A stretch of 35,050 nucleotides of DNA, from NCBI GenBank assembly GCA_016182295.1, contig JACOXP010000011.1:1-35050 (forward strand). Reading direction: 5' to 3'. This DNA comes from Candidatus Harrisonbacteria bacterium. Its GTDB lineage: Bacteria > Patescibacteriota > Minisyncoccia > UBA6257 > WO2-44-18. Under the pieces are notes generated by a model. It did no database searches and was not told the DNA's origin. It saw only the letters and a list, made by a program, of their open reading frames with translations. Positions 2,857 to 24,560 of the stretch are shown here, one piece after another (the stretch's first letter is position 1; each line of letters starts with the position of its first letter). A program made the translations under genes and the position numbers.

Positions 2857-2966
2857 ATAATTCTAAATTTTGAAAATAAAAATGCCTCGCAGGATTACTC
2901 CTGCGAGGCACATGAATTGTGTCCAACCGTCCAACGGTCTAGGACTCGCACACGACGAGAAAACGA
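2857..2966 (-). repeat. 110-bp 3' module, copy 1 (tail codons + 3' UTR + terminator)
   Basis: About 106/110 identical to 23190..23299 by direct comparison. Confidence 0.9.
2872..2910 (-). terminator. intrinsic terminator
   Basis: Minus strand TGCCTCGCAG-GAGTAATC-CTGCGAGGCA followed by TTTTTATTTT. Confidence 0.85.
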
Positions 2967-2977
2967 TCGCCCTCACC

Positions 2978-3211
2978 CTACTCAAACCCGTCCCAATCGA
3001 GGCTCAAGTACCGCCCGCCGCCTGGGGCGGTGACGGCTTTGTGGCCGCAAACCCGCCGGAACTCTTCACGGTTCACTCCCTGCAGATTTGCGCAAAGCAA
3101 ATCCGACAACAGACCGGACTCCAGCAGGTCCTGCAACTGTTTAGCAGGCGTCTGCTTTTGCAGGATCAGGTTCAGCACCTGATTCCCTTGTGCCAAGGTT
3201 GCGTCTTTCAT
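2978..3211 (-). CDS. small hypothetical protein sharing a C-terminal tail with 23272..23865; in-frame TAG precedes the conserved tail
   Basis: SD (AAGGGAG) before ATG; ends SLDWDGFE*, then same-frame GEGDRFLVVCES* to 2939. Confidence 0.6.
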   Translation of the reverse strand: MKDATLAQGNQVLNLILQKQTPAKQLQDLLESGLLSDLLCANLQGVNREEFRRVCGHKAVTAPGGGRYLSLDWDGFE

Positions 3212-3372
3212 CGCAACTCCCTTCTTTAAAAGTGCTTACCGCGAACTCTCGCGATCAGACCCTTAAGAAACCTTAAGTTGCCCAAAGATTAACATATTCA
3301 ATAAAATTAATCAACCTCGCCTCTAGTAAGTTCAACAAGTAAGCGCGCCTCTATCCACTCTCTTCAGCAGCG

Positions 3373-3406
3373 CTATCCTATCGGATAGTACTATCCGATA
3401 GGATAG
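3373..3406. promoter_or_regulatory. 34-bp perfect palindrome made of two 16-bp operator-like half units
   Basis: CTATCCTATCGGATAG-TA-CTATCCGATAGGATAG. Confidence 0.7.
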
Positions 3407-3414
3407 CAGGTTTG

Positions 3415-3906
3415 TTAATTTCTGCCCTTGCCTGTTCCACCTCTCCGATACTTTTTCGGCAACGTTGGGTTGTATTTCAAAAAATTCCAACGCGGGCCGC
3501 TGATCTGCGGAGGGTTTTCTAAAATAAAGGCTAGGTGGTCAAGCCATTCCGAAAAAATTGATTCGGATTTCTGATTTTTCACCTCGGAATGAAGGATTTT
3601 TGTTTTCCGATCACGATTCAGCGCGTAACGGCTTTTATATTCTTGATTGGCTAAAATAGTTTTCTTAACGGTGCTTATCGTCACAGGCGATATCCATAAT
3701 TTCTCGCCTATTGATTTATACGAATGGCCCTTTTTAACAAGCGAAAGTGCGGCCAATCTCCGCGCGACGCTTTCTCTTTCTTGGTCAGTCAATAGAGCGT
3801 TGAATAAACCGCCAAGCTCCCGAGTGGATTTTGCCTTAGAAAATTCTTCCAGTATTTTTTCCCAAATTATGTCTTTTAATCCTTTTGAAGTTCTAATTGG
3901 TTTCAT
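3415..3906 (-). CDS. YerC/YecD-type TrpR-like transcriptional regulator
   Basis: LLTDQERESVARRLAALSLVKKGHSYKSIGEKLWISPVTISTVKK TrpR-family HTH. Confidence 0.8.
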   Translation of the reverse strand: MKPIRTSKGLKDIIWEKILEEFSKAKSTRELGGLFNALLTDQERESVARRLAALSLVKKGHSYKSIGEKLWISPVTISTVKKTILANQEYKSRYALNRDRKTKILHSEVKNQKSESIFSEWLDHLAFILENPPQISGPRWNFLKYNPTLPKKYRRGGTGKGRN

Positions 3907-3919
3907 AATTATTTTTCCA

Positions 3920-3935
3920 CTATCCGATAGGATAG
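3920..3935. promoter_or_regulatory. operator-like site upstream of the TrpR-like gene
   Basis: CTATCCGATAGGATAG, same 16-mer as at 3391..3406. Confidence 0.7.
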
Positions 3936-3971
3936 TATCCTAAATAAAAACAATGTGGTTTGCAAGCGGCA

Positions 3972-3987
3972 CTATCCTATAGGATAG
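3972..3987. promoter_or_regulatory. operator-like palindrome
   Basis: CTATCCTATAGGATAG perfect palindrome. Confidence 0.7.
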
Positions 3988-4055
3988 TGCCGCGGAGTAA
4001 TGTAATGGGGTAACGGGGTGAGGAGGGGTGAGGAAAAGCGAGAAGAGATGGATTA

Positions 4056-5218: not shown

Positions 5219-5522
5219 GGGAGTGATCGGCTTCGACAAAAGAAATTTCTGATATGTTGCAGGTCGAGCTGGTCCGGCGCTCGTTAAACTCTGGACCAAA
5301 CATTTAATTGCTAACCAAAAATTAGCTCTTGCCTACGCTTAATTGACGCGGGCCATCGGCGGTTTCATTCCTCATGAGACCATCACCGGTGTTATACTCG
5401 AGGATCGTGTTTGAACAGTTCGCTTCGTACTAGTCAAACACTAAAGCCAACGAAGCAACCTTAAACTTGTCGATGACATATTGGAAATCTTTTGGATGTG
5501 GGTTCGATTCCCACCACTTCCA
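5219..5522 (+). ncRNA. ssrA: transfer-messenger RNA
   Basis: GGGAGTG...CACTTCC acceptor pairing, GGTTCGATTCC T-arm, internal tag ORF GCT AAC CAA AAA TTA GCT CTT GCC TAC GCT TAA; adjacent to smpB. Confidence 0.92.
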
Positions 5523-5527
5523 CAAAT

Positions 5528-23089: not shown

Positions 23090-23118
23090 ATTATAATACA
23101 AGCATATACCAATGTCAA
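23090..23118 (-). promoter_or_regulatory. perfect sigma70 consensus promoter TTGACA-N17-TATAAT
   Basis: Minus strand TTGACATTGGTATATGCTTGTATTATAAT. Confidence 0.88.
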
Positions 23119-23167
23119 GCTTTAGCTTTTTTAAGAGCCTCTTTCAAACGTTCCTTGAATCCTTCTA
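23113..23167 (-). repeat. duplicated ruvA 3' end (remnant copy)
   Basis: 54/55 identical to 23977..24031; encodes GFKERLKEALKKAKA*. Confidence 0.92.
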
Positions 23168-23189
23168 ATTCTGTGTCGTCATTTTTATA

Positions 23190-23299
23190 ATAATTCTAAC
23201 TTTTGAAAATAAAAATGCCTCGCAGGATTACTCCTGCGAGGCATATGAATTGTGTCCAACCGTCTAACAGTCTAGGACTCGCACACGACGAGAAAACGA
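23190..23299 (-). repeat. 110-bp 3' module, copy 2 (includes terminator)
   Basis: About 106/110 identical to 2857..2966. Confidence 0.9.
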
Positions 23300-23865
23300 C
23301 AGTCCCCATGCCAGTCAAACCCGCACCAATAGAGGCTCGAGTCCCACTCGCCGCCAACGAGCCAGGCGCAAGGAACGCCACCCCAGAAGCCAAGAAGTAC
23401 GATGGGGTACTTTCTCAGCTCACCGGGGTTGGCCGCTATGAAAGCGCGAAATTCCGGCTGGGTGGCAGGGCGTTCCCCGGCTTTCTTAAATTCGGAGATG
23501 GCGTCCTCGGAGCTAATCCAACGATTGAAATGGCGAAGCTTCATGTTGAGCTCGACCCTGTCGCCTCGCTTGTCACTCGGGAAATGCTTCTCGTTGATGT
23601 CATCGTTCTTCCGGTCATACTTCCCGGCGGAGATCATCTCTGCCCGGGATTTGGAGTAATCCACGACTACCTTGAAGAGGTTGCCGACGACTTTCTTTCC
23701 GTCCATCATCAGAGCCCCGATCTTCTTTCGAAGCTCGGGATCGGTCTCGAGGCGGCGAAGATCCTCATCGGACCCGCCTGCATCCGAAACCGCATTGGAG
23801 AGGGCCTTGAAGACCCTCGCGCACACATCGAACGCCGAAACGAACCGACTCTTTTTCTGAGCCAT
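23272..23865 (-). CDS. hypothetical protein with conserved C-terminal tail (..RFLVVCES)
   Basis: SD GGAGG before ATG; terminator downstream; shared tail with 2978..3211. Confidence 0.7.
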   Translation of the reverse strand: MAQKKSRFVSAFDVCARVFKALSNAVSDAGGSDEDLRRLETDPELRKKIGALMMDGKKVVGNLFKVVVDYSKSRAEMISAGKYDRKNDDINEKHFPSDKRGDRVELNMKLRHFNRWISSEDAISEFKKAGERPATQPEFRAFIAANPGELRKYPIVLLGFWGGVPCAWLVGGEWDSSLYWCGFDWHGDCRFLVVCES

Positions 23866-23976: not shown

Positions 23977-24031
23977 TGTCAGGCTTTAGCTTTTTTAAGA
24001 GCCTCTTTCAAACGTTCCTTGAATCCTTCTA
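23977..24031 (-). repeat. ruvA 3' end, genuine copy of the duplication
   Basis: Within ruvA; 54/55 identical to 23113..23167. Confidence 0.92.
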
Positions 24032-24560
24032 TTTTTGGATCAATTCTAGAAATGGCGTTTTTGGCTTGCTGTTTGGTGTAACCGAGCGAAACCAAAGTTT
24101 CTTCAAGTTCCAAATCCGATTCCATTAAGTTGAGAGTGGTTTTGGGGGACGAACCGGAGGTCAGCTTACCCTTAAGATCAATGACTACTCGCTCGGCCGT
24201 TTTCCTCCCCACGCCTCCGGCCCTGGTCAGCAAGTCCACCTTCCCTTCATTAATAGCGACAACCAACTGATCTATTGGAGCGACATTGAGAATAGCCATC
24301 GCCGTGCGGGGCCCGATGCCGCTGACCGTGTTCAATCTTTCAAAAAGATACAGCTCTCCTTCAGTCATGAAACCATAAAGCTCAAACGGCTCGTTTTCCC
24401 TATTATAGAGCGAACAGAAAAGTTTGATATTGGAGCCGATTTGCGCTAAACTTTGGGCGGCTCGCTGGGACAACAATACCTTAAAACCGATCCCCGCCGA
24501 CTCCAAAACAATAAAACCCTCTTTTTTGCCCGCTAATTTGCCAGAAAGCGAATAAATCAT
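23979..24560 (-). CDS. ruvA: Holliday junction DNA helicase RuvA
   Basis: MIYSLSGKLAGKKEGFIVLE, VSGIGPRTAMAIL, RAGGVGRKTAERVVIDLKGKL. Confidence 0.93.
   Translation of the reverse strand: MIYSLSGKLAGKKEGFIVLESAGIGFKVLLSQRAAQSLAQIGSNIKLFCSLYNRENEPFELYGFMTEGELYLFERLNTVSGIGPRTAMAILNVAPIDQLVVAINEGKVDLLTRAGGVGRKTAERVVIDLKGKLTSGSSPKTTLNLMESDLELEETLVSLGYTKQQAKNAISRIDPKIEGFKERLKEALKKAKA

What the first reader, a model, noticed from the sequence alone, without database searches (positions are those of the whole stretch)
2857..3211. Shared 110-bp 3' module joins two otherwise different small genes 20 kb apart
2857..2966 and 23190..23299 are about 106/110 identical on the same strand. The block holds the last codons (..RFLVVCES*), a ~50-bp spacer, a strong terminator (TGCCTCGCAG..CTGCGAGGCATTTTTATTTT) and flanking AT-rich sequence. 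Upstream, homology fades to an alignable C-terminal region (GGGRYLSLDWDGF / GEWDSSLYWCGFDW) and then disappears. Both genes are SD-led and sit between housekeeping genes (argS and the yerC-like gene; murE-like and ruvA). Inference: a dispersed small-gene family with a variable N-terminus and a fixed C-terminal tail, 3' UTR and terminator, possibly moved as cassettes or diversified by 3'-anchored recombination. I know of no described system that fits.
Basis: partly seen in the sequence, partly recalled or inferred. Interest (0 to 1): 0.78.

Follow-up and report, generated by a model that had tools for sequence, protein, structure and literature searches.

The report
Orphaned targets of a mutation-making retroelement
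The two look-alike gene tails are the leftover hypervariable ends of proteins that a diversity-generating retroelement (a known system that deliberately scrambles one patch of a gene) used to mutate, and in this genome no copy of the scrambling machinery is found any more, only its targets and one scrap of its enzyme.

Summary
The shared block is real: 106/110 identical, extending to 147/166. It is the 3' end of two diversity-generating retroelement (DGR) target genes: end of the variable region (VR), the fixed RFLVV-type homing end, a short 3' UTR and a terminator hairpin. Family members occur in 22 of 101 relatives, several next to an RT with the DGR 'SQ' motif, and 16 fetched loci hold a template repeat differing from its VR at adenines, with 0-1 other changes per 80 nt. 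DGRs sit at the very loci of the two window genes: argS in G005, and ruvA..murE in G003 (there split over two contigs). The window genome has no RT and no template. At a third DGR site (rpe) it keeps a target whose VR differs from a related template at 7 positions, 6 of them adenines, followed by the last ~25 codons of a deleted RT. Gene 2 is intact with a predicted C-type lectin fold. Gene 1 is a decayed chimera with an in-frame TAG. DGRs in Patescibacteria and targets outliving their RT are both described. Unexplained side lead: 8-nt tandem repeats between VR and terminator.

The parts
2978..3211 (-). Gene 1: truncated, chimeric DGR target gene (77 aa to an in-frame TAG). First ~58 codons are those of the argS-locus DGR target; the CLec body is missing; the end is of gene-2 type
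   Evidence: 84% aa identity over residues 1-58 to the G005 target that is followed by TR, RT and argS; 3' part matches gene 2
3039..3279 (-). 5' leader and first codons of gene 1, 80% DNA identity to the leader and start of the G005 argS-locus DGR target
   Evidence: blastn L081 1462-1703
2966..3022 (-). Gene 1 variable-region segment (3' part of VR); holds the TAG at 2978-2980
   Evidence: 15 of 19 mismatches to gene 2 lie here, 14 at codon positions 1-2; aligned to relatives' TRs
2942..2965 (-). Fixed VR 3' end / presumed homing site, would read RFLVVCES (after the stop in gene 1)
   Evidence: Identical in genes 1 and 2; corresponds to RFLAVRxS at the TR/VR 3' end of relatives
2922..2937 (-). 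Two 8-nt tandem repeats CCGTTGGA CGGTTGGA between VR and hairpin
   Evidence: 8-nt repeat enriched downstream of VRs, not of TRs
2873..2910 (-). Terminator hairpin of gene 1 (12-bp stem, GTAA loop, T run); also in the place of the DGR target hairpin
   Evidence: compare PMC3240598
23272..23865 (-). Gene 2: intact orphan DGR target (variable protein), 197 aa; N-terminal helices, residues 61-197 predicted C-type lectin fold
   Evidence: Homologs in 22/101 relatives, TR/VR/RT beside homologs, fold
23299..23355 (-). Gene 2 variable-region segment (3' part of VR; the VR probably starts further upstream)
23275..23298 (-). Gene 2 fixed VR 3' end / presumed homing site (RFLVVCES)
23255..23270 (-). Two 8-nt tandem repeats CTGTTAGA CGGTTGGA between VR and hairpin
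23205..23244 (-). Terminator hairpin of gene 2 with T run
23113..23173 (-). Partial copy of the ruvA 3' end lying beyond gene 2; with 23977-24037 it forms a 61-bp direct repeat (95%) that brackets gene 2
23977..24037 (-). Genuine ruvA 3' end, second copy of the 61-bp repeat

Best explanation
Genes 1 and 2 are orphaned target (variable-protein) genes of Patescibacteria-type DGRs. In relatives, an RT copies a template repeat (TR) into cDNA with random bases opposite template adenines, and the cDNA replaces the variable region (VR) at the 3' end of a target gene, anchored at a fixed homing sequence just upstream of a hairpin. That gives a modular front, a hypervariable C-type-lectin tail and a fixed 3' end. 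In the window's genome the TR and RT appear deleted from three sites that still hold DGRs in relatives (argS, ruvA..murE, rpe), leaving targets frozen in their last state. Gene 2 is intact. Gene 1 is a decayed chimera that joins the front of the argS-locus target to a gene-2-type 3' end. Shown: homology to targets with TR/VR/RT, orthologous DGR loci, no RT or TR in the assembly, an RT tail at rpe, adenine bias at the rpe VR. Inferred: past activity on genes 1 and 2 themselves, the order of losses, the recombination that spread the 3' block, and binding by the lectin-like tail.
For: Homologs in 22/101 relatives; RT genes lie beside members in G004, G020, G055, G061, G064 and carry LGNLTSQ, the SQ motif of DGR RTs (PMC3521204); one such RT matches PDB 8ub7 at 2e-42, far ahead of group II RTs (that 8ub7 is the BPP-1 DGR RT is my own knowledge). 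TR/VR pairs at 16 fetched loci: 9-20 mismatches at TR adenines, 0-1 elsewhere per 80 nt. Orthologous sites in 8 family genomes (with 21, 22, 25): argS - G005 target+TR+RT, G006 and G007 target only, G000 gene 1; ruvA - G003 target+TR, with an RT on another contig that runs into murE, G005 RT tail only, G000 gene 2; rpe - G003 and G004 complete, G007 target only, G000 target + RT tail. G000 has no RT and no TR. C4 relic: VR vs G052 TR 6 of 7 mismatches at A, p = 6e-4, followed by pre-TR leader and RT C-terminal remnant, then rpe. Genes 1 vs 2: hypervariation stops sharply at the fixed end and falls on codon positions 1-2. Predicted C-type lectin fold, residues 61-197.
Against: No cognate TR survives for the VR of genes 1 and 2, so their adenine bias is tested only against distant TRs: TR-to-VR comparison p = 0.0017-0.15 (strongest with G064 and G004), gene 1 vs gene 2 p = 0.015-0.30. 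The assembly is 91% complete, so an RT could lie in the missing part. Two codons of gene 1's VR (GAG, TAG against GAC, TGG) do not follow from a canonical relatives' TR and imply either a divergent TR or later point mutation. Fold matches are modest (Foldseek E about 0.1 at best, best VIA Z 7.7). Identity of the 3' UTR and terminator between genes 1 and 2 needs a duplication or gene conversion that a DGR alone does not provide.
Confidence: 0.93

Rival explanations
1. The DGR is still active: an RT and TR reside in the missing ~9% of the genome or on another element and diversify genes 1, 2, C10 and C4 in trans.
For: Assembly 91% complete in 19 contigs; remote targets served in trans are known (PMC7517822); gene 2 is intact; other RT-less genomes of the family keep open targets.
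Against: The three DGR sites seen in relatives are all present in the assembly and all lack an RT; one carries a deletion scar that left the RT tail. Gene 1 has a stop inside its VR and no CLec body. Four other family genomes (G001, G002, G006, G007; 66-96% complete) also have targets without an RT hit.
Confidence: 0.15
2. A non-DGR dispersed gene family whose copies exchange ends by ordinary homologous recombination or cassette movement.
For: Genes 1 and 2 share a 3' block, C10 and C4 share 136 bp of 5' leader and start at 94%, and a 61-bp direct repeat brackets gene 2. The C4 target is 90% identical to a gene in another family although uvrB is only 64-70% identical, so targets do move.
Against: Does not explain TRs with adenine-only differences and RTs beside homologs, at the same loci, nor the codon-position bias and sharp edge of the variation. 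Recombination is real here but sits on top of the DGR.
Confidence: 0.04
3. The 3' block is just a duplicated transcription terminator with a bit of neighbouring coding sequence, without meaning for the proteins.
For: The hairpin with T run is a textbook terminator.
Against: The frame and the RFLVV end are the conserved end of a 22-genome protein family, and the block's upper part varies at codon positions 1-2 while the lower part is fixed.
Confidence: 0.01

Closest known systems
Patescibacteria (CPR) DGRs, 'DGR clade 2' of Roux et al. 2021 (PMC8144416)
   Same: Same bacterial group by the named relatives; cellular DGRs whose targets have varied N-termini fused to a C-terminal C-type lectin region, without recognisable conserved domains
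   Different: The window's genome shows targets only; TR and RT are missing from three ancestral sites. RT clade placement by tree was not run
Treponema denticola isolates with target genes but no RT or TR (PMC4891356)
   Same: Targets interpreted as remnants of lost DGR cores, with multiple gains and losses between strains
   Different: Here the loss is read at orthologous loci across genera, with an RT tail left at one site and a chimeric, truncated target at another
Remote variable proteins of cyanobacteria, e.g. Nostoc all3226 (PMC7517822)
   Same: Dispersed CLec paralogs away from any RT, suggested removal of the diversifier after dispersal
   Different: No RT at all in the assembled genome here, and 3' UTR plus terminator shared between two loci
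Bordetella phage BPP-1 DGR target site (PMC3240598)
   Same: Fixed homing region followed by a hairpin downstream of the VR
   Different: Here the hairpin is longer (mostly 9-15 bp), lies about 30-70 nt downstream, doubles as a terminator, the window loop is GTAA rather than GRNA, and 8-nt repeats fill the spacer

Membership tests
DGR variable protein (target gene) | Homologs carry a VR paired with a TR differing mainly at TR adenines | tested here: met
   16 fetched loci, 0-1 non-adenine mismatches per 80 nt, many beside homologs of gene 2
DGR variable protein (target gene) | VR of the window genes themselves differs from a cognate TR at adenines | tested here: inconclusive
   No cognate TR found; against distant TRs p = 0.0017-0.15 for genes 1 and 2. 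The same genome's C4 target gives 6 of 7 at A
DGR variable protein (target gene) | C-terminal C-type lectin fold holding the VR | tested here: met
   Gene 2 model pLDDT 86; best-ranked rows over residues 61-197 are nearly all C-type lectins, Z up to 7.7, a modest score. Gene 1 lacks this body
DGR variable protein (target gene) | Fixed 3' homing sequence followed by an inverted repeat | tested here: met
   RFLVVCES end and 12-bp hairpin in both genes; similar hairpin after most relatives' VRs. Function as homing site not testable here
Complete, active DGR | RT gene with the SQ motif in the genome | tested here: not met
   No PF00078 hit in the own genome; only an RT C-terminal remnant at C4
Complete, active DGR | Template repeat in the genome | tested here: not met
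   No TR-like match in G000, none in the 110-bp search; assembly 91% complete
Complete, active DGR | Accessory protein Avd or equivalent | not tested
   Not searched
DGR clade 2 (Patescibacteria) | RT places in clade 2 by phylogeny | not tested
   No RT in this genome; relatives' RTs not placed in the published tree

The most novel reading that the evidence does not exclude
Patescibacterial DGR targets carry a VR-specific recognition element not described so far: an array of 8-nt repeats (YYTTGGNN) between the homing end and the terminator hairpin, absent after templates. The whole 3' block (homing end, repeat array, hairpin) would act as a portable target tag that can be grafted behind new gene fronts, which would explain why it is shared by genes 1 and 2.
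Probability: 0.25. Interest if true: 0.65.

Novelty: new member of a known kind. Interest (0 to 1): 0.37.

Why it matters
It replaces a claimed unknown system with a precise known one and documents it at nucleotide level in a lineage where DGRs have come and gone: three genomic sites, eight genera, and states from complete cassette to target only to RT scrap. Such frozen targets show which variants cells keep once the mutator is gone. The mosaic sharing of 5' and 3' ends shows how new targets may arise. The 8-nt repeat array is a concrete, testable candidate for how these DGRs mark targets and spare templates.

Tried and rejected
Plasmid tblastn with gene 2: no match. Pfam, NCBIfam: no family for the target protein. 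Genome contigs with gene 2 alone: none; with an alignment: 20 loci. Viral contigs: only 2 weak relatives, so a phage origin is not supported. Rfam on the window: only tmRNA and a tRNA, nothing at the blocks. PDB by sequence profile: no credible relative of the target. Known DGR variable-protein structures did not appear among the listed fold matches, which proves nothing. RT remnants in the window itself: none credible. An adenine test of gene 1 vs gene 2 with only distant TRs is suggestive but weak, so I do not lean on it.

Full report
OBSERVATION. The two blocks exist as described: 2857-2966 and 23190-23299 are 106/110 identical, and the match extends without gaps to 2857-3022 / 23190-23355 (147/166). 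Both genes lie on the minus strand. The terminator-like hairpin is real. One correction matters: gene 1 does not end in RFLVVCES. Its ORF stops at an in-frame TAG (2978-2980), and GEGDRFLVVCES follows in the same frame. Gene 2 is an open 197-codon gene ending in RFLVVCES.

The differences between the two copies are patterned. Reading the coding strand, 15 of 19 mismatches fall in the first 56 bp and 4 in the last 110 bp (p = 2.4e-5); of the 15, six are at codon position 1, eight at position 2 and one at position 3. A duplicated gene drifting under selection would show the opposite codon bias.

WHAT IT IS. Gene 2 has homologs in 22 of 101 related genomes, up to seven per genome. Most share the C-terminal pattern VWxxxxGxRxVPYL......RxLxLxW....W...YRFLAVRK, with fixed residues framing variable ones. 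Named relatives found in a public genome collection include Liptonbacteria, Colwellbacteria, Ryanbacteria, Jorgensenbacteria and Magasanikbacteria, i.e. Patescibacteria. In G004, G020, G055, G061 and G064 a reverse transcriptase lies 1-3 kb from a member. These RTs carry LGNLTSQ, the SQ motif that marks DGR RTs (PMC3521204), and one matches PDB 8ub7 at 2e-42 against 2e-22 for the next RT group. A scan of 20 fetched RT or target loci found near-repeats with adenine-specific differences at 16 of them: 9-20 mismatches at adenines of one copy and 0-1 elsewhere per 80 nt, with the template copy 370-580 bp downstream of the variable copy. This is the textbook DGR layout of target gene with VR, then TR, then RT.

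THE TWO LOCI. In G005 (same family) the gene upstream of argS begins MKDATLAQGNQVLNLILQKQVPAEHLQDLLESGLLSDLLC, 84% identical to the front of gene 1 (80% DNA identity including the leader), and is followed by VR, terminator, TR, RT and argS. In the window, the front of that gene runs straight into the gene-2-type 3' block and then argS; the lectin body, TR and RT are gone. In G003, ruvA is followed by a target and a TR at a contig end, and another contig starts with an RT that runs into the murE-like gene. The window has ruvA, gene 2, a small unrelated gene and the murE-like gene at this place. So each window gene sits at a site that holds a DGR in a relative (for G003 the join across two contigs is inferred).

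A THIRD SITE SHOWS THE SCAR. G000:C4 (L086) has a target gene, a terminator, 50-60 bp matching the pre-TR leader of G005, then directly the last ~25 codons of a DGR RT (SYLGLLKHGNTKKLRTEVL), then rpe and a transketolase. G003 and G004 have complete DGRs at rpe. The VR of this C4 target aligns to a TR in G052 with 7 mismatches in 78, six at template adenines (p = 6e-4). This is adenine-specific mutagenesis inside the window's own genome. Across eight family genomes and three sites the states are: complete, target only, RT tail only, target plus RT tail, or empty.

THE MACHINERY IS MISSING. No RT was found in the own genome and no TR. The assembly is 91% complete in 19 contigs, so absence is likely but not proven. 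The best reading is that genes 1 and 2 are orphaned targets. For their own VRs I lack the cognate TR; a comparison with seven distant TRs points the expected way (p = 0.0017-0.15 per TR for TR against gene 1 or 2; controls for gene 1 against gene 2 with shifted TRs are flat) but is weak. At codon 15 of the block genes 1, 2 and C10 read TAG, TGG and TTG, compatible with A in a lost template; this would also explain gene 1's stop, though a plain point mutation would too.

FOLD. AlphaFold2 with 21 sequences gives pLDDT 86 for gene 2. Residues 61-197 align with C-type lectin domains, which make up nearly all listed matches, best Z 7.7 (Foldseek itself gives E about 0.1 at best). This is the fold that DGR targets use (PMC8144416). 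The score is modest, so I treat it as agreement, not proof.

EXCHANGE OF PARTS. Genes 1 and 2 share a 3' block; C10 and C4 share 136 bp of 5' leader and start codons at 94% and nothing else. The C4 target is 90% identical to a gene of G052, in another family, although uvrB of the two genomes is only 64-70% identical, which suggests transfer. Why the 3' UTR and terminator are so alike in genes 1 and 2 is not settled; gene conversion or a duplication followed by deletion are both possible.

SIDE LEAD. Between the VR stop and the hairpin most targets carry 8-nt tandem repeats (for example CTTTGAAC TTTGGTTC TTGGAACC). Core matches: 39 in 16 spacers against 8.3 +/- 2.7 in shuffles and 2 after the paired TRs; 42 against 9.6 +/- 2.9 in 14 further spacers (largely distinct records, but some are of the same genomes); half of successive spacings are exactly 8 nt; other genes' 3' ends carry far fewer. 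The motif was chosen after looking at the data, so the size of the effect, the TR contrast and the fixed period are the better arguments. I found no description of it in the literature held (one search). It could help the machinery tell target from template.

COMPARISON AND NOVELTY. DGRs are known to be enriched in Patescibacteria, with a clade restricted to them (PMC8144416). Targets left behind after loss of RT and TR are described in Treponema denticola (PMC4891356) and suggested in Nostoc (PMC7517822). A hairpin after the VR is needed for efficient homing in BPP-1 (PMC3240598). The finding is therefore a new member of a known kind: clear, well placed, but not a new system. The statement 'it is a DGR' fails here, because RT and TR were looked for and not found; the statement 'these are DGR target genes' stands.

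Noticed in passing
2922-2937 and 23255-23270; spacers after VRs in L063-L082 and L123-L142: 8-nt tandem repeats (YYTTGGNN) between the VR stop codon and the terminator hairpin of DGR targets, nearly absent after the paired templates.
   Followed up: partly
23113-23173 and 23977-24037: 61-bp direct repeat (95%) of the ruvA 3' end bracketing gene 2; not seen in G003. Possibly a scar of insertion or of the rearrangement that removed TR and RT.
   Followed up: partly
L086 (G000:C4), 767-1584: Relic DGR at rpe: target, terminator, pre-TR leader and RT C-terminal remnant; target body 90% identical to one in G052, a different family with 64-70% identical uvrB.
   Followed up: yes
L005 (G000:C10) and L086 (G000:C4): Two other targets of this genome share 136 bp of 5' leader and first codons (94%) but differ afterwards, the mirror image of genes 1 and 2.
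   Followed up: partly
L108 (G005 ruvA), 580-696: RT C-terminal remnant downstream of ruvA in a genome that keeps an intact DGR at argS: another eroded DGR site.
   Followed up: no
3372-3407, about 3918-3940, 3966-3993: Palindromes built on ACTATCCGATAGGATAGT-like units on both sides of a TrpR/YerC-like gene (3415-3906); they look like operators of an autoregulated repressor.
   Followed up: no
286-522: Small SD-led gene with a CxxC start and a sub-threshold match to ribosome modulation factor (E 0.0037, below cut-off).
   Followed up: no
5219-5525: tmRNA gene found by Rfam.
   Followed up: no
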